The translations under genes and the position numbers were made by a program. This document shows positions 29,026-61,643 of a DNA stretch of 64,000 nt, piece after piece (position 1 is the first letter of the stretch; the number at the start of each line of letters is the position of its first letter). Source of the DNA: Vavraia culicis subsp. floridensis (lineage: Eukaryota; Microsporidia; Pleistophoridae); the NCBI RefSeq assembly GCF_000192795.1, contig NW_007360623.1:30639-94638 (forward strand), in the 5' to 3' direction. The notes under the pieces are model-generated. The model did no database searches, was not told the origin of the DNA, and was given only the letters and a program-made list of their open reading frames with translations.

Positions 29026-29686
29026 AAAAGGAGGTACTCGCAGTTGTATGTGATTGATACGAACGATGCCACAGATCTGAGATCGAGAAACCCTGCAAAT
29101 GAGAAGTGTGACAGAGCAATACTACGCAATCTTGACATGACAATAAGAGAAGTCAACCCGTATGCAGAATCTTGCTGAGGTTGAGAGAAGTGTAGTGCGT
29201 GAAGGAAACATGTTGATGGTAAATGTAGAGTCAAACAAGAACATTCATCGTGACATGAACAGGTACAATGTTCCTACAACGGGCGAGATTACGATGATAT
29301 TCAACGACAAAAACGGCGAGCATTCATTCAAGAGAAGACAGTTTTCGGTTCTTCTTTCGTTTGCGATGACAATCCACAAGTCACAAGGTCAGTCATTTGA
29401 CAAGGTAGGTGTTTATCTGCACAGCTCTGTCGAGAGTGGCTATGCAAACGGTCTAAGGGTGTATGTTGCTGACAATGGAGACCAAGGAAAGTGTGAGAAT
29501 GGTAAAGTATACACAAGAAATGTTGTATACAATGAGCCATTATAATGAAAGTAAATTTATTGATTTTGTAACTATACAACAGTTGGTAGAAAGGAATGAC
29601 CTAATGTTTTAGTTATATTCAAAAGCGCTATTTTGTATATAATCCATTCAGACACCCGTTTTTGAAAAACGGGATAGCGCAGCTAA
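29026..29686 (+). mobile_element. Decayed Helitron (copy F): deleted replicase-helicase plus 3' end
   Basis: The fragment keeps a piece of the Helitron replicase-helicase protein, then a Helitron 3' end. From 29026 frame 1 reads RRYSQLYVIDTNDAT..., the Helitron N-terminal helicase-like region, up to a stop near 29159. A frameshift follows, and another frame (29162-29545) continues with ERSVVREGN and RYNVPTTGEI. About 29325 it jumps directly to helicase motifs near the C terminus (LLSFAMTIHKSQGQSFDKVG), so most of the protein is deleted. After the stop, sequence matching the 60.4 kb copy runs to a hairpin, CCCGTTTTTGAAAAACGGG (29655-29673), then ATAGCGCAG and CTAA (29683-29686). Confidence 0.8.
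29162..29545 (+). pseudogene. Helitron helicase remnant with internal deletions
   Basis: Open for 127 codons but not a functional gene. It joins an N-terminal Helitron block to the motif VI region of a Pif1-type helicase, losing the ATP-binding motifs. Compared with the copy at 60.6 kb it also lacks 32 bases between CACAGC and TCTGTCGAG. That removes the GQLYVTLSR block and happens to restore the reading frame into the tail VESGYANGLRVYVADNG. Confidence 0.8.
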
Positions 29687-30090: not shown

Positions 30091-31647
30091 ATGCAAATTA
30101 TTATAATGCTGATCAGATCGGTGTATGTGATGGACAACTCGTATCCTGACCAGGATAGTGGTCGTATCGGAGAAAGTTCTCAAAGCAACACTTTCATATA
30201 TCCTGGTATGGAAGTAGTCGGCCATCCTACACAGTTGACCACTTGTAGTGATGAATCACAAGAACATGCACAACATGATTGTGAAAGTGCGGGAACGAGC
30301 AGCTCAAGAAAACGCAAGAGAGTGAGCGGGCAATCGAATGAAGGTCGCTCGAGCAAGCTTGAAAAGTTACAAAATGTCATTTTTAAAGTTATAAATAAGA
30401 GAGAAGATTTTGCACAAGAATATAATCAAACTACAAAGGATAATTAAGGAGATTTGGAGTTGTCCAGGTATTTTGATAATTTAAAAGAAATGTTGGTTAA
30501 GTTTACAGATGATACACACAAAAATAAGGGAAAGATAGTTAATACGGGAACAGATAATTGTGATGGTTTGTCACATATTTCAGAATATGTTACATTTAGA
30601 AAAAGCGAAGAAGAACAAATGAAAAGATTTAAATTGTTATTTTTGGAGCTGGATATTGCACAAGTTGATGTTCCTTGTGAGGGTGTGAAAAAACTTTCTC
30701 AGCTGCTGAAGCTTTACGCCAGATACAACGATGAACTTTATTCTCTGCTAACAACTAATTCTAAGATAAGTGAGGCAGAGTATTTTAGTAGTGAAAGTGT
30801 GAAATGTGTAGGTTGTAGGCATTCTCATCGTAATAGCTGTTTTATTGTGCAAAATGTGATCGATAATTTATTTGTAAACTCATTAGAAATGCTGTACGGA
30901 AACAAAGTTGTTGACAAGTGTTTGCTTTTTTCTGAGTTTACAAGCCTTTGTGGGTATTTTGTGCAGTTCCACAACAATGTAACAAAAATATTGCTGCGTG
31001 ATAAAGCGATCACGATATATCTTGTCAGCAGAATCGAAAACATTGCAACATCATGCATAAAACTGACGGATAAAGGAGATAATCCGTTCGATAACAAACA
31101 GAATATGCTGAGACAGATCGTTTATCGTTCCTTTGTTCGTACATTTCTGTTTTCACAACTTCTTTATGTCTTCAGAGTTGAGTCAAGCGTTATTTCTAAG
31201 TACGTATTTTTTTCCGAGTTGGAGTATACTTGCTCAACAGTTTGTGGTGCGAGTAATCCTGATACTGTTTGCGATACTTTTTTGGAAGGATATGAGCCTC
31301 TATTCTTTTTGCTGTCCGGTTTATTTGACAAGATTGGATTTACAAAATATGATTGTCTCGCTACTTGGGATAAGAATCTAAGCATGGAGCACTTAAATGG
31401 AAAATACATTCTTGAGCAGATTCTTTGTATCCATTCACGTCATATGAAAGAGAGATTAGGACAAAACGTAAAATGGTTGTATGGATATATTGGACAGTAT
31501 CTCTCCACAAGCTATTCTGAGAGGCGAGATGAAATACTTAAGAAAATTGAGGAGTTGGATTATAACAACTTTGAACATATGGCACAGCAAGTTTGTGATC
31601 TTTATAAGTGTGTTAGAGGACATCTGGAAGAGTTGATACGGCGGTAA
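30091..31647 (+). pseudogene. Unknown protein gene with one in-frame stop
   Basis: Two consecutive frames, 30091-30447 (118 codons) and 30448-31647 (about 400 codons), lie in the same phase and are separated only by a TAA at 30445-30447. The second part has no ATG near its start. The simplest reading is a single gene of about 518 residues with a nonsense mutation. The N-terminal part is Ser-rich and ends in a basic patch (SSRKRKR), possibly a nuclear signal. The C-terminal part is helical with scattered cysteines (CVGCRHSHRNSC). I recognise no family. It lies between two Helitron pieces, and its codon use is more AT-rich than the housekeeping genes, so it may be a transposon passenger or lineage-specific gene. 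Confidence 0.6.
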
Positions 31648-31800
31648 GTAACACCCAGATATGTGAATCATAAGATTAAATAGTATTTATGGATTTGTGT
31701 TGTCTAAATATTACATGTGTTTTTGTAGTAGTTTTTATATCTAATATTACGGTTCATTATTATTGTGAACAAGCATCAGGTGATATTATCATCGCATGAG
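31648..31800. other. Intergenic before a Helitron-like left end
   Basis: Short AT-rich spacer, nothing recognised. Confidence 0.4.
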
Positions 31801-32075
31801 TAAAAAGACAACACAGAAGCTGATTGATCAGTTCTGAGAAATTAATTATTTGACCCTTCGAGAAAAATAAAAAATGTTTGTTTCACGTATTCGCACTGCA
31901 TGAAGAGTCTAAAGTTGTTTTGCAGCTCATTCTTTCCGAGAAGCACTTAGTCATCACTTATAAGCAATATCTACTTTGTAGTACATCTTAATAAATTTTT
32001 ATACACTAACACATACATCAACTTTAGTGAATGTTACATAAAAATGTGAATAAGGAAATAAAACGCTCTGTTCTG
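31801..32075 (+). mobile_element. Helitron-like element, copy C (5' end clear, 3' end degraded)
   Basis: It begins TAAAAAGACAACACAGAAGC and stays closely similar for about 180 bases to the minus-strand sequence ending at 62440: shared GCTGATTGATCAGTTCTGA, TTATTTGACCCTTCGAGAAA and CACGTATTCGCACTGCATGA. Beyond about 31985 the match fades. A weak 3' candidate near 32055-32075 (GGAAATAAAACGCTCTG) resembles the end of copy A, but no hairpin is visible there, so the right boundary is a guess. Confidence 0.6.
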
Positions 32076-32359
32076 AGCTTGTACAAGAACGCTTACTATT
32101 GGTCGAGTTAAATGGCGTTCTACGAACACATTAACACGCATTTTATTCGTGTGACAATGGATTAGTGTTGTATTTCTGGAAATCATTTCCACGGCTCAAC
32201 ATCTCGTTCATGCTTTTTTGTCAGACCTTGTATTTTACTTTCATACAGTCTTTCTACTGTCCAACACTGCATTTTTCCCTATATCCTGTTTTATTTTACT
32301 TCTTAACACCTCAAGCTCCTTTCATCTCGCGTGTGCATATGTTTTTTGCTCATACTTAA

Positions 32360-32362
32360 CCC
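32360..32362 (+). promoter_or_regulatory. CCC abutting the Pol epsilon C-half start
   Basis: CCC directly precedes the ATG at 32363. This marks the frame as an independent gene with its own start rather than the 3' part of a longer one. Confidence 0.6.
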
Positions 32363-34633
32363 ATGAGCTTTTCAATCGTACAGGGCCTAAAAGACGAATG
32401 GCTTAACAAACTAAAGACGAAAACAAACCGCAAAGTATGCATTTACTACAAGAAAGAGCATAGGAAAAGCATTGTATATTTCCAATGCGGTGATAAACTG
32501 GCAATCGGTGAGCACCGAGATGACGATCATGTTCTTATCGTGCAGAAGAGCGATTTTGCAGACAAAACCTGTTTTACATTCTTTTTGTCGAACGAGAATG
32601 TGCCAAGAAACTTCAACAAAATACCTAAAAAATACGCCAATCACCTTTCGATCACGCAGTACTACGAGAAGCCGTGCGCACTGAACTATGTTGTTAGTCC
32701 ATGCAATTACACTCCTCTTGTCTCGTTTATACACAACAAACGCACATTTTATGCATTTATGCGTAACAATTCCTTTTATATATGCATGAATGACAAAAGG
32801 ATAAAAGAAACACTGTTCGTAATGTGCATGAATGATCGGAAGAGCAAAAATTTTGTGGACCGGAAAAATACACTGGTTGTGTTGCTGCCCACCAAGCATG
32901 TGATGGCGTACGATGCACACAAAACGGCATTTTCATTCCTTGAGGATGCTGTACATGACGTGCCGAGCAACATCCTATCAAATGCTCACAACACCTTGGT
33001 GATGCTCAACGAGCAGGTCCAAGCACGGTTACGTATTTGTGCGTTTGCTAAGATACCATTGTTAAATTACAGTGTAGACAGTGCTCTGAACAATATCTAC
33101 AAGGGAATGATGCGTGCAAATAGAATGGTAAAGAATGAGGGCATTGATTTCGAGTGGTATGGCACTGAGGAGACGCTAACAAGCGGATGGTACGAGAATG
33201 TGGTGGAAATAGAAATCGTAGGTGCGATGATGATTGGGGTGAAACGTTATGGAAGGGGTGTTAGTGCACGTTTGCAGGGCTTTGTTGCCAAGAGTACCGT
33301 AGGAAACGATAGTGTAGATAAACCGGGCACCTACTACGAAGGTAAGAATGCTTATGAATATGAAATGATGAAGAGCGAGCATCCTGATGACCGTGGAAAC
33401 GTGGCGGCTAATGTAACGGGCAGTATTATCACTGGCAAAGAAGAAATTGCTCACAATAATAGTTCATTTGAGCTGAGCAGTGAACTAAAACAATCGGTCC
33501 TTTGTAGTAGCTGGTGTGATACGATGTTGGAAAATAATGCGGGTGTTTGTGGAGAAAAAACGGGCAAAAAATACGATGATATTTGCACAAGCTATGACTT
33601 AGAACGGAAAGAGAACTATTCCAATGCAGCGGTTGAAGAGATTATGAGCACGGACGGAAAGGCCAATGAACTGGATGATGTAACCGAAAAGGAAAATAGC
33701 GAGGAAATAAAAACAGAAGAGCCTAATTTTATAGAAATGACTGTTCTTAAGAAATTTCTGAAGTATGTTTCGAATAGCAAAGAGCTTTTCAGCGAGCTGC
33801 CCCACTGGCTTGTAAGGACAGACCTGATTTCCAAAAAATTGAAGAACTTAGTACGGCAGCTAGGCAACGATTACATAAGAGAATGTATTAACATGCTTAA
33901 TAAACATAACTCGGTACTTGCAAGCAGTAAAAATATGATATTTGTTCATGTCAAGAACGAGAACGAACTGAAAGGCGTGATAAAAGAGAATTGGAGGATG
34001 CTGAGGAGATTTGAAAGGCTGATTTACCTTGATCACGATAACTACTTTTATTTAAAACAGGGTGATGGTGCGCCCAGAGAAAGGATCGGGTGTAATACGC
34101 AACACAAAATACCCCTCAGTTTCCTAGAAATGGCATTCAGGGGCGATGTGATTGGCAACTCCTACTTTTACGGCCTGACAAAGAAGAACGTTGATGTACT
34201 CAAGGTCTTAGAAGTATATGCGCTCAAATATCAGAGAATAAATGAAATAAGAAGCAATATTTACAAGTTGTTAGGTCTCAATGAGTTTAAAATAGAGCAA
34301 AATCAAACAATACGTACGAGTGTAATATGCATATCGTGTAAAAATGAAAATATTTTGGTAGTAAATGATAAAATAAACAAATGTAGAAGATGCTTTAACA
34401 AGTTTGGTATTGAAAGCGTAGAAAATGCGTTAATCAGTTACATCTATGAAAGGGTGCGAACCAATGAATATGTGTGCGGTAGTTGTAAAAATTATTGTGA
34501 GAAAAGATTAGCAATGGAGTGCATGTGCGGAGGGAGGTACCAAAAAGTAATTACTGACTATTCGTTCATCAAGAACGTGGTAAAGACCAAGAAAATGTGT
34601 GATTATGTTGATGACATAATGGCAAAGGTTTGA
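32363..34633 (+). CDS. Stand-alone C-terminal half of DNA polymerase epsilon
   Basis: The 756 residues resemble only the non-catalytic C-terminal half of Pol2/POLE. Two zinc modules close the protein: C-x2-C-x14-C-x2-C (CISC...CRRC, near 656-677) and C-x2-C-x11-C-x-C (CGSC...CMC, near 710-726). The second has exactly the CysB spacing of Pol epsilon. Before them are helices like the Pol2 region that leads into CysA (LKVLEVYALKYQRINEIRSN and YKLLGLNEF). Upstream, GWYENVVEIEIVGAMMI resembles the family's inactivated polymerase region. An acidic low-complexity stretch covers about 292-455. None of the polymerase or exonuclease motifs of the catalytic half is present, and none lies upstream in the window. 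In yeast the C-half alone supports viability by assembling the CMG helicase. Confidence 0.75.
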   Translation: MSFSIVQGLKDEWLNKLKTKTNRKVCIYYKKEHRKSIVYFQCGDKLAIGEHRDDDHVLIVQKSDFADKTCFTFFLSNENVPRNFNKIPKKYANHLSITQYYEKPCALNYVVSPCNYTPLVSFIHNKRTFYAFMRNNSFYICMNDKRIKETLFVMCMNDRKSKNFVDRKNTLVVLLPTKHVMAYDAHKTAFSFLEDAVHDVPSNILSNAHNTLVMLNEQVQARLRICAFAKIPLLNYSVDSALNNIYKGMMRANRMVKNEGIDFEWYGTEETLTSGWYENVVEIEIVGAMMIGVKRYGRGVSARLQGFVAKSTVGNDSVDKPGTYYEGKNAYEYEMMKSEHPDDRGNVAANVTGSIITGKEEIAHNNSSFELSSELKQSVLCSSWCDTMLENNAGVCGEKTGKKYDDICTSYDLERKENYSNAAVEEIMSTDGKANELDDVTEKENSEEIKTEEPNFIEMTVLKKFLKYVSNSKELFSELPHWLVRTDLISKKLKNLVRQLGNDYIRECINMLNKHNSVLASSKNMIFVHVKNENELKGVIKENWRMLRRFERLIYLDHDNYFYLKQGDGAPRERIGCNTQHKIPLSFLEMAFRGDVIGNSYFYGLTKKNVDVLKVLEVYALKYQRINEIRSNIYKLLGLNEFKIEQNQTIRTSVICISCKNENILVVNDKINKCRRCFNKFGIESVENALISYIYERVRTNEYVCGSCKNYCEKRLAMECMCGGRYQKVITDYSFIKNVVKTKKMCDYVDDIMAKV

Positions 34634-37078: not shown

Positions 37079-38527
37079 ATGAAACTGACCTACAAGCCTG
37101 CACAGAGAAGAAAAAGCAAAATGCTTGCGAATGTAAATTTAGATGATGATATTGATAAGTATTGGACTAATGCGACCAAAGTGTTGGACAATGATGTGTA
37201 TGAGTTGGAGGAGTTCAGTTTTTTGGAGAAAAGTGTTAATTTGGAGGAGATGGGCAGGAGGGATGAAGAGGGTGTAGTGGGAGAGATGGGCAGGAGGGAT
37301 GAAGAGGGTGTAGTGGGGGAGATGGGCAAGAAAGATGAAGAGGGTGTAATGGAGGAGTATGGAGGTAGCACGTGTAAACGTGTCGGTATTGATAACGCTG
37401 ATGCAGAAAATGAACTTACGGCTGAGATGAATGATGCTAGTGTAGCAGAAAAGAACGGAGGTGGTGTAAACGGTAATGATGTTGAGATTGAGGGTGTCCA
37501 GCAGTTCATCAATTTTAGCAGCTTAGATGATGACAGTTTCAGTGTTGGTGGAGAGAGCAATGGCATGATCAGTGATGATGGCAATTACGGAGAGAATGCT
37601 GATGTTGCAGAAAACGATTTGGTGGCAGCGAAAGTGAACAACCGTGCGAAACATGAAAAAGATGATTTTTTGGTTGCTGATGTTGAATTAGTGCAAAATG
37701 TGGGTGCGAATTTGCGAGAGTTGGAAGGAAGAAAAAAAAGGAAATCGTTCTTTGACTTCAACACGATGAAAAAAGTTGAAATGATGTGTAGTGCTGGGGA
37801 TGATGCTGTGAATGCCGACGAGACTGTCAAAGAGGAGGAAGGTGCGCACAGCGGTGCGCAGTACGAGGATGAAGACCTTTACGAAGAGGGCAGTGTGGAT
37901 GATTACAGCATGGATGGGATTGAGCATGGTGAGGAATGTGACATTACTTATGAGGAGGACCGTACCAGTACGCAGCAGAACGAGAGCACTAAACAAGTTG
38001 GCATCGATACAAGCATCGTAGTAGATGGGGAGGAGCAGTCGCGTAAGACACCTGAGGAAAAATCTAAAACACGTATGCAAGGAGAAGAAATAAAAGATGG
38101 TGTTTCTGCCATGCCGATGAGGAAGAGTGTGAAAAGGAAGGTATTGCAGAACAGAACAAATGCAAAAAAAATGGAAGGAGAGAGTAAACGCAAAAGAAGA
38201 AGTTCGTCAAATGAAAGCATGGACAGCAACGTACTGAGCAATATATCATCGAGACAATCCAAGAACGGCTTTGTTCCTCTCGTGATAGAAAGTAATTTAG
38301 AAACTGCCATTCTGAACTTACAGGAGAACGCGTACATAGAGGATGACTCGGCAACCAAAAGCTTTTCATTTTACGTTACAAAGGGTAAATTTACAATAAA
38401 ACGGGGAGAAAAGGAATTTACGTTGAAGAGAGATGGAATGCTGGTAATAAATGAAGGTGAATCGTTTGTTTGCAGGGGAATGAGCAGAGGCGGTAATACA
38501 GGGATCGTTACGTATAAGATTACATAA
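37079..38527 (+). CDS. MIF2: CENP-C / Mif2 centromere protein
   Basis: Kinetochore protein of 482 residues that in other eukaryotes binds the CENP-A nucleosome and dimerises. The last ~60 residues form a cupin fold like Mif2: FSFYVTKGKFTIKRGEKEFT, GMLVINEGESFVCRG, then GNTGIVTYKI. Before it, a basic segment KRKRRSSSNES and SSRQSKNGFVPLVIESN (about residues 380-410) occupies the position of the CENP-C motif, though that motif is degenerate. Residues 40-330 are acidic and look disordered, with three 12-residue repeats EMGRRDEEGVVG. An ATG slightly downstream is possible, but 37079 has CCCCC about 17 bases before it. The cupin gives the call; the rest is supportive. Confidence 0.72.
   Translation: MKLTYKPAQRRKSKMLANVNLDDDIDKYWTNATKVLDNDVYELEEFSFLEKSVNLEEMGRRDEEGVVGEMGRRDEEGVVGEMGKKDEEGVMEEYGGSTCKRVGIDNADAENELTAEMNDASVAEKNGGGVNGNDVEIEGVQQFINFSSLDDDSFSVGGESNGMISDDGNYGENADVAENDLVAAKVNNRAKHEKDDFLVADVELVQNVGANLRELEGRKKRKSFFDFNTMKKVEMMCSAGDDAVNADETVKEEEGAHSGAQYEDEDLYEEGSVDDYSMDGIEHGEECDITYEEDRTSTQQNESTKQVGIDTSIVVDGEEQSRKTPEEKSKTRMQGEEIKDGVSAMPMRKSVKRKVLQNRTNAKKMEGESKRKRRSSSNESMDSNVLSNISSRQSKNGFVPLVIESNLETAILNLQENAYIEDDSATKSFSFYVTKGKFTIKRGEKEFTLKRDGMLVINEGESFVCRGMSRGGNTGIVTYKIT
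37247..37354 (+). repeat. 36-bp tandem repeat inside the CENP-C gene
   Basis: Three in-frame copies start at 37247, 37283 and 37319. Copies one and two are almost identical; the third has AAGAAA for AGGAGG and ATGG for GTGG. Confidence 0.92.
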
Positions 38528-60559: not shown

Positions 60560-61643
60560 ATACACAACATTTCTTGTGTATACTTTATCATTCTCACGCT
60601 TTCCATGGTCTCCATTGTCAGCAACATACACCCTTAGACCGTTTGCATAGCCACTCTCGACAGAGTTACATACAACTGACCATGCACAAAGACTGGGCTG
60701 TGCAGATAAACACCTACCTTGTCAAATGACTGACCCTGTGACTTATGGATTGTCATCGTAAACGAAAGAAGAACCGGAAACTGTCTTCTCTTGAGTATGA
60801 ATGGCAGCTTTGTCTCGCTCGGTGCCATGTCGATCCTTGGTATCACTGCCCTGCTATCTTTCCTGGATCCGGTTACAATAGTAGCTATGATGAAGTTTGT
60901 GTGGAGTTCATCAACCACCAGGTGTGTGCCATTGAGTAGGCTGTTGGCTGGATCAAGGTTGCGCAATAGCATTATCAACGCACCCCTTTTTAGAACTAAC
61001 TTGTGCGGTGGCATTCCTGAAGGCTGCTGCTTGTTGAGAAAGTCTAACGGATAGTTCGCAACAACATCATTGTCCTCTGTGACAATAGAGTCTGCACTCG
61101 TGTATGTCACTTCGTTGCCAATCATCAAGTCAAGGACACTGTCATTGATTTCCTTTGCAGCATCGTTGTTTGTTGTGAGTATAGTTCTGTTCGTCAGATC
61201 TTCGCTGTCAGCCATGTTGGCCACATCACCATATATCTCGTTAACGATGTCATCGCACATATCGTCAACATATTCGTTGAACAGTCCAAGTGCATCATGT
61301 GGTCTGTTGAACACACAGATGTATGCGAACAGCTTTCTGATATGGTCAGATGTCTCTGTCATTGCAGCTTCGCTCAGCATGTTCTTTCATTCACTGTCAT
61401 CCTGCAGAAGATTTTTTGCCCTTGCTGCTTCCTCGGATGTGCCATATACAACATTGTTTGCACTTCTTAAGTCGTCGAATGACGTTGCATCTCTCACATT
61501 GAGCAAGAGCATTCTCAGATAGAATCTCTCCTTTTCCTCTGGATTGACCGCATACGATCTTGTAATGACCTTGCCATCACCTCGCTATCGCAATACCCAT
61601 CGGCTGTTCTGGTACACATAGTGATATGGAATGTCGGTGTAGA
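60560..61643 (-). pseudogene. Helitron Pif1-type helicase C-terminal half, disrupted
   Basis: Reading from 61643 on the minus strand, the Helitron order is clear: YLYTDIPYHYVYQNSRWV, then EEKERFYLRMLLLNVRDATS, DLRSANNVVYGTSEEA, LLNGTHLVVDELHTNFI, MTIHKSQGQSFDKVG, HGQLYVTLSRV. Two in-frame stops interrupt it: TAG near 61580 (after VLR) and TGA near 61390, where the family has Trp (SE-stop-KNML). After LSRV the frame shifts, and the tail (ESGYANGLRVYVADNGDHGK) continues in another phase to about 60560. The ATP-binding N-terminal half is missing. Only the last 248 codons (60634-61380) are open. Confidence 0.85.

What the first reader, a model, noticed from the sequence alone, without database searches (positions are those of the whole stretch)
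32363..34633. DNA polymerase epsilon reduced to a stand-alone non-catalytic C-terminal half
Seen: a 756-residue gene with its own ATG and adjacent CCC motif, ending in two zinc modules; the second has the C-x2-C-x11-C-x-C spacing of Pol epsilon CysB. No polymerase or exonuclease motif is present in it or upstream. Known: in budding yeast the Pol2 catalytic half is dispensable for viability while the C-half is essential for CMG helicase assembly. Inference: this lineage either split Pol2 into two genes or kept only the structural half, leaving leading-strand synthesis to Pol delta.
Basis: partly seen in the sequence, partly recalled or inferred. Interest (0 to 1): 0.8.

Follow-up and report, generated by a model that had tools for sequence, protein, structure and literature searches.

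The report
Polymerase epsilon tail without an enzyme
A microsporidian parasite carries a gene for what looks like only the structural tail end of the DNA-copying enzyme polymerase epsilon, and no gene for the working half was found in the genome data held, so it may copy its chromosomes as crippled laboratory yeast mutants do.

Summary
The 756-aa ORF is real; a TAA stop lies directly before its CCC-ATG. Residues 625-748 match the zinc-bearing tail of Pol epsilon subunit Pol2: profile comparison with yeast plus human Pol2 gives E 5e-7, 0 of 200 decoys as good. The Trachipleistophora hominis relative passes the Pfam cut-off for zf-DPOE. The match is much weaker to this genome's own Pol alpha and delta tails. 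The rest of the protein could not be shown to be Pol2: sequence tests were weak or negative and two structure predictions failed. In the 5.63 Mb held, the B-family catalytic genes found are Pol delta and one taken for Pol alpha; probes for Pol epsilon's thumb, motif C and catalytic half gave nothing. The genome may be incomplete and no eukaryotic control existed, so 'catalytic half lost' is likely, not proven. Two distant unnamed relatives also look stand-alone, with CysA but no CysB. Best reading: a natural counterpart of yeast pol2-16, a scaffold for CMG assembly, Pol delta making the leading strand. The closest paper found reports loss of the whole enzyme or of the C-half, the opposite pattern.

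The parts
32363..34633 (+). 756-aa ORF: proposed stand-alone C-terminal half of DNA polymerase epsilon subunit Pol2
32357..32362 (+). in-frame TAA stop followed by CCC directly before the ATG (the CCC motif as a microsporidian start signal is recalled)
33017..33205 (+). residues 219-281: IP..N / SG.Y.NVV stretch that aligns collinearly with the DUF1744 region of Pol2 (weak)
   Evidence: hhalign 3 of 200 decoys as good for residues 180-330, 13 of 200 for 1-330; profile Smith-Waterman on 200-300: 0 of 200 (5 sequences), 9 of 200 (3 sequences); negative
33293..33724 (+). residues 311-454: fast-changing insert, 20% identical to T. hominis against 66-78% elsewhere
33725..34192 (+). residues 455-610: conserved among the five relatives; placed on the inactivated palm region of Pol2 by inference only, not significant
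34235..34606 (+). residues 625-748: Pol epsilon type C-terminal domain (Dpb2-binding zinc domain in yeast)
   Evidence: hhalign E 5.2e-7, 0 of 200 decoys; PF22912 above the curated cut-off in P0002
34328..34393 (+). CysA module C-x2-C-x14-C-x2-C (residues 656-677), kept in P0001-P0004
34475..34528 (+). CysB module C-x2-C-x11-C-x-C (residues 705-722), absent from P0003 and P0004

Best explanation
The gene is what remains of POL2 in this microsporidian lineage. The exonuclease-polymerase half is gone, and the inactivated C-terminal half with its two-zinc tail survives as its own gene. SHOWN: separate ORF; Pol epsilon type tail; no polymerase motifs A or C in the window; in the genome held, the only B-family catalytic genes found are Pol delta and one taken for Pol alpha; two GINS-type genes and a CDC45-like ORF (below its cut-off) are present. 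INFERRED: the protein docks a B subunit (Dpb2, not found here) through its CysA/CysB tail, bridges GINS and MCM during CMG helicase assembly at origins, and makes no DNA. Pol delta then synthesises both strands, as in yeast pol2-16. The split or loss is probably older than the parting of this genus from T. hominis, which has the same layout; two unnamed relatives at 25-28% identity agree.
For: Tail: hhalign against yeast plus human Pol2 E 5.2e-7, probability 92%, 0 of 200 decoys. Smith-Waterman profile z 13.6 (0 of 200) against Pol2, but 1.9 (7 of 200) and 0.8 (36 of 200) against this genome's own Pol alpha and delta tails. T. hominis relative 23.7 bits to zf-DPOE, cut-off 21. The only PDB match of the family profile at E<=10 is a Pol epsilon tail, 5vbn_B, at the insignificant E 0.46. 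Stand-alone: in-frame TAA before CCC-ATG; T. hominis form 782 aa. Catalytic half not found: PF00136 hits only Pol delta and the gene taken for Pol alpha, PF03104 only Pol delta, POL2_thumb none, typed yeast catalytic half none at E<=10, DTDGIW-coding pattern none with up to 1 mismatch. Yardstick: yeast Pol2's catalytic half scores 199 bits to PF03104 and 277 to POL2_thumb, though only 57 to PF00136, while this genome's Pol delta was found with PF03104 at 101.7 bits. Partners: PSF2 and Sld5-type GINS genes at or over cut-off, CDC45-like 30.9 bits against a cut-off of 34. Biology: in yeast the catalytic half is dispensable for viability, and C-Pol2 plus Dpb2 is the minimal Pol epsilon for CMG assembly (PMC6265327 passages; PMC5829166 passages).
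Against: The body (1-610) is not shown to be Pol2: hhalign 13 of 200 decoys (1-330), 3 of 200 (180-330), 33 of 200 (450-610); palm SW 19 and 8 of 200; global body score at chance, 151 of 300 and 293 of 300 shuffles as good; the yeast/human DUF1744 HMM lists none of the 5 real proteins although shuffles are listed; no DUF1744 Pfam hit. Both structure predictions failed (pLDDT 30 and 42) and Foldseek found nothing at E<=0.001. The window protein alone is below the zf-DPOE cut-off (12.8 of 21) and alone matches only two ribosomal uS14 zinc proteins in the PDB, E 0.42 and 0.53. No Dpb2 found. The genome held may be incomplete. T. hominis was not searched for a catalytic half, and the protein searches could not return full-length Pol2 (length limit). 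PMC5216125 (passages) speaks of trees of B-family polymerase paralogues 'including microsporidians', which may hold a Pol epsilon of T. hominis or E. cuniculi. PMC7544198 says some Microsporidia lack the C-half, so the scaffold is not indispensable throughout the phylum, unless it was too diverged to be seen.
Confidence: 0.58

Rival explanations
1. POL2 was split into two genes: the catalytic half is still encoded, either in sequence missing from the assembly held or too diverged to be seen, and joins the C-half by protein contact.
For: The genome held is 5,626,998 bases in 80 contigs and may be incomplete. A Vavraia culicis assembly in print is 6.1 Mb in 379 scaffolds (PMC4435813 Table 1 passage); whether this window is that species is not established. 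E. cuniculi is listed as having Pol2 and Dpb2 (PMC1851970 table passage). The searches had no eukaryotic control genome. T. hominis could not be searched for it.
Against: Five searches with different probes found nothing, although Pol delta, the Pol alpha-like gene and two B subunits were found.
Confidence: 0.22
2. It is not the Pol2 C-half but a different scaffold protein that carries a Pol epsilon type zinc tail, docking a polymerase B subunit or MCM onto another partner.
For: Only residues 625-748 are significantly Pol2-like; tests on the body fail or are weak.
Against: The best local alignments of residues 180-330 fall at the collinear place (219-281 with yeast about 1646-1731) in hhalign and Smith-Waterman. 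Size and order fit a shortened C-half. In microsporidia fast sequence change often hides homology (general knowledge).
Confidence: 0.14
3. A decaying remnant of POL2 with no function.
For: Apparent loss of the enzyme half and, in two relatives, of CysB.
Against: The frame is intact over 756 codons, is 63-64% identical to T. hominis with the eight zinc cysteines kept in both, and an insert at 20% identity sits between blocks at 66-78%: a pattern of selection.
Confidence: 0.03

Closest known systems
DNA polymerase epsilon subunit Pol2/POLE, C-terminal half (C-Pol2; Pfam DUF1744, zf-DPOE)
   Same: Two-zinc tail with the same CysB spacing, significant profile match of the tail, C-terminal position, no active-site motifs found
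   Different: Stand-alone gene of 756 aa; body does not match DUF1744; 144-residue variable insert; no catalytic half found in the genome held
Yeast pol2-16 (engineered deletion of residues 176-1134)
   Same: Pol2 without its exonuclease-polymerase half
   Different: Natural; same layout in at least two species (window and T. hominis); by inference from the alignment the start lies inside the C-half; fitness unknown
Pol epsilon losses reported by Kazlauskas et al. 2020 (PMC7544198, passages)
   Same: Reduction of Pol epsilon within microsporidia
   Different: They report loss of the whole enzyme or of the C-terminal half; here the C-terminal part is kept and the catalytic half was not found. 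Their Table S8 could not be read

Membership tests
Pol2/POLE, C-terminal half | Pol epsilon type C-terminal zinc domain (CysA + CysB) | tested here: met
   the window protein alone is below the Pfam cut-off, its T. hominis relative is above it
Pol2/POLE, C-terminal half | DUF1744 / inactivated exonuclease-polymerase fold | tested here: inconclusive
   No DUF1744 hit at E<=10 in 3 of 3 members of A1; collinear but weak local matches; negative; structure predictions failed
Full-length Pol2/POLE | N-terminal exonuclease and polymerase domains in the same chain | tested here: not met
   In-frame TAA directly before CCC-ATG; no motif A or C in the window
Pol epsilon holoenzyme | Dpb2 B subunit encoded in the genome | tested here: inconclusive
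   [quoted passage not shown] Dpoe2NT and recalled yeast Dpb2 found nothing, without a positive control
Pol alpha or Pol delta C-terminal domain | Tail closer to Pol alpha or delta than to epsilon | tested here: not met
   z 1.9 and 0.8 against this genome's own alpha and delta tails, 13.6 against yeast/human Pol2
CMG assembly factor | Binds Dpb2, GINS and MCM and is needed for origin firing | not testable with these tools
   Needs biochemistry

The most novel reading that the evidence does not exclude
A whole eukaryotic lineage (this genus, Trachipleistophora and probably the unnamed, more distant group of P0003 and P0004) has discarded the leading-strand polymerase and kept only its scaffold half as a separate gene, so that Pol delta replicates both strands of every chromosome in nature. 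In the distant group the scaffold has shed CysB too and kept CysA. In yeast ZF1 (taken here as CysA, by order) organises the Pol2-Dpb2 core and its disruption is incompatible with growth, while ZF2 contacts Mcm5 (passages). T. hominis and the distant group were not themselves searched for a catalytic half.
Probability: 0.5. Interest if true: 0.8.

Novelty: new variant of a known kind. Interest (0 to 1): 0.62.

Why it matters
In yeast the catalytic half of Pol epsilon is dispensable only at the price of severe sickness, so whether any organism lives without it in nature bears directly on which polymerase must copy the leading strand. A lineage that has done so would be a natural test of the Pol delta-both-strands model, would show which parts of Pol epsilon are hardest to lose (the CMG-assembly scaffold, CysA above all), and may help to explain fast sequence change in microsporidia. 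It would also correct an annotation: the T. hominis protein is named 'DNA polymerase epsilon, catalytic subunit A', yet Pfam detects only the zinc tail in it.

Tried and rejected
Structure prediction of the full protein on three sequences (pLDDT 30) and of residues 449-756 on five (pLDDT 42) failed; Foldseek on the second model gave no match at E<=0.001 and is treated as uninformative. PF08490 (DUF1744) in the own genome rang nowhere, not even in the controls, so it shows nothing. PF22912 in the own genome missed even this gene, so that search does not judge absence. A plain HMM of four relatives against yeast C-Pol2 put yeast first, but barely (9.8 bits against 8.6 for the best of 5,000 shuffles). 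A yeast/human DUF1744 HMM listed none of the 5 real proteins while shuffles did appear. Global body alignment: z about 0 with 3 sequences and -1.4 with 5. Pol alpha or delta origin of the tail was rejected. P0003 and P0004 singly gave no meaningful Pfam or PDB match. Literature: of nine paper searches, six bear on a reduced Pol epsilon; judged from their listings and from passages of nine papers, none reports a C-half-only Pol epsilon.

Full report
THE OBSERVATION. The ORF at 32363-34633 (+) is 756 aa. The bases before it read TAA-CCC-ATG, so the frame is closed just upstream and cannot continue into an upstream exon without splicing. The three + frames of 31648-32362 hold 12, 15 and 13 stops. 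The nearest long upstream ORF, 30490-31647, has no Pfam hit over cut-off. The tail holds two zinc modules, residues 656-677 and 705-722. A six-frame pattern scan of the whole window found no B-family motif A or motif C, and one motif-B-like hit near a stop.

RELATIVES. Protein search found P0001 (756 aa, 94%), P0002 of Trachipleistophora hominis (782 aa, 63%, named by NCBI 'DNA polymerase epsilon, catalytic subunit A'), P0003 (686 aa, 28% over 76% of the searched region) and P0004 (864 aa, 43% to P0003). They return only proteins of 0.55 to 1.75 times the query's length that share short words with it, so full-length Pol2 relatives could not have appeared, and 'all relatives are stand-alone' must not be read from them. 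That the window is microsporidian rests on the T. hominis match; the organisms of P0001, P0003 and P0004 are not named. Window and P0002 are 72, 77, 78 and 66% identical in four blocks and 20% in residues 311-454, the pattern of a constrained protein with a loose insert. P0003 begins near the same place and P0004 about 36 residues earlier; both end shortly after CysA. Their contigs are 2,173 and 4,253 bases, and I could not read the flanks, so their true ends are likely but not proven.

WHAT IT IS: THE TAIL. The window protein scores 12.8 bits to zf-DPOE (cut-off 21), P0002 scores 23.7 and passes, and 3 of 3 members of A1 list the family at E<=10. The window protein alone finds no Pol2 chain in the PDB at E<=1, only two uS14 ribosomal proteins; the family profile finds one PDB match at E<=10, the Pol epsilon tail 5vbn_B, at E 0.46. 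hhalign gives E 1.3e-4 (probability 53%) against yeast C-Pol2 alone, 1.4e-5 (80%) against yeast plus human, and 5.2e-7 (92%) for the tail alone, with 0 of 200 column-shuffled decoys as good. A simple profile Smith-Waterman gives z 13.6 (0 of 200), and P0001 alone z 14.3 (0 of 200). Against this genome's own Pol alpha and Pol delta tails the values are z 1.9 (7 of 200) and 0.8 (36 of 200). The own Pol alpha tail is itself somewhat Pol2-like (z 6.7, 0 of 200), the own Pol delta tail is not (z 1.7, 18 of 200); the first agrees with the remark in PMC7544198 that microsporidian Pol alpha tails resemble epsilon (passage).

WHAT IT IS: THE BODY. This is the weak point. The best hhalign match of residues 180-330 to Pol2 lies at the collinear place (219-281 with yeast about 1646-1731, IP..N and SG.Y.NVV), with 3 of 200 decoys as good, but 13 of 200 when residues 1-330 are used. 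Smith-Waterman on 200-300 gives 0 of 200 with five sequences and 9 of 200 with three. Residues 450-610 give 33 of 200, and 455-570 give 19 or 8 of 200. A global test of the body is at chance (151 of 300 and 293 of 300 shuffles as good), and a yeast/human DUF1744 HMM does not list the real proteins. Both AlphaFold jobs failed (pLDDT 30.1; 42.0), and Foldseek had no match at E<=0.001. I treat the body as Pol2 by position, size and parsimony, not by proof.

IS THE ENZYME HALF ELSEWHERE? The genome held is 5,626,998 bases in 80 contigs. PF00136 finds two genes: Pol delta (1,141 aa read in the locus, with exonuclease domain and zf-C4pol) and a second PolB of 813 aa. I take the second for Pol alpha, because no exonuclease domain was detected in it and its motif context is alpha-like (recalled). 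PF03104 finds only Pol delta. POL2_thumb finds nothing, the recalled yeast Pol2 catalytic half nothing at E<=10, and a DNA pattern for DTDGIW (epsilon's motif C, recalled and present in the typed yeast sequence) nothing with up to one mismatch. As a yardstick, yeast Pol2 scores 199 bits to PF03104, 57 to PF00136 and 277 to POL2_thumb, so a kept enzyme half should probably have been seen. No eukaryotic control genome was available. The 6.1-Mb V. culicis assembly (PMC4435813 passage) shows how much could be missing, if this is that species, which I could not establish. T. hominis itself could not be searched; PMC5216125 (passages) mentions trees of B-family paralogues including microsporidians without saying, in what I saw, which have Pol epsilon.

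PARTNERS. Two B-subunit genes, of Pol alpha and Pol delta type, are present and no third was found. Dpoe2NT and recalled yeast Dpb2 gave nothing, without a positive control. PSF2 and an Sld5-type GINS gene are at or over cut-off, and a CDC45-like ORF is just under (30.9 of 34 bits). E. cuniculi is listed with both Pol2 and Dpb2 (PMC1851970 table passage).

HOW IT LIKELY WORKS. From PMC6265327 (passages): C-Pol2 is a dead polymerase fold without DNA binding. ZF1 (taken here as CysA) is an organising centre of the Pol2-Dpb2 core, and disrupting it is incompatible with growth. ZF2 touches Mcm5. C-Pol2 plus Dpb2 is the minimal Pol epsilon set for CMG assembly and supports replication in vitro. From PMC5829166 (passages): pol2-16 yeast, without residues 176-1134, lives but is sick, and the data suggest that Pol delta then copies both strands. 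PMC7308368 (passages) says the same about which module is essential. A stand-alone C-half with Pol delta as the only proofreading PolB found fits this, and so does keeping CysA when CysB is lost in P0003 and P0004. Against full generality: PMC7544198 says some Microsporidia lack the C-half.

NOVELTY. [quoted passage not shown] The opposite pattern, the C-half kept and the catalytic half gone, was not found in six literature searches (listings and passages only). The parts are known; the arrangement is a new variant.

CHECK OF THIS REPORT. On checking, I cut the searches counted against a catalytic half from six to five (concerns the C-half), replaced 'last 124 residues' by 625-748, added the length limit of the protein searches, and the papers that could speak against loss.

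Noticed in passing
window 60637-61380 (-) and 29162-29545 (+): A Pif1-type helicase piece (Pif1_2B_dom, 52.9 bits), and upstream of the finding a 127-aa ORF with a Pif1-like look (recalled; no Pfam hit at E<=0.001); possibly mobile-element remains. In yeast, pol2-16 cells grow poorly without Pif1 (passage).
   Followed up: no
P0003 and P0004: Distant relatives keep CysA but end before CysB, so one zinc module seems lost in that group.
   Followed up: partly
L002:640-3081: This genome's second PolB, taken for Pol alpha, is 813 aa; its tail is Pol2-like (z 6.7, 0 of 200), in line with a remark in PMC7544198.
   Followed up: partly
window 37079-38527 (+): 482-aa ORF with acidic repeats and a C-terminal stretch that looks like a CENP-C/Mif2 cupin (recalled); no Pfam hit at E<=0.001.
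   Followed up: no
P0002 (T. hominis): Named 'DNA polymerase epsilon, catalytic subunit A' although Pfam finds only zf-DPOE in it at E<=1.
   Followed up: yes
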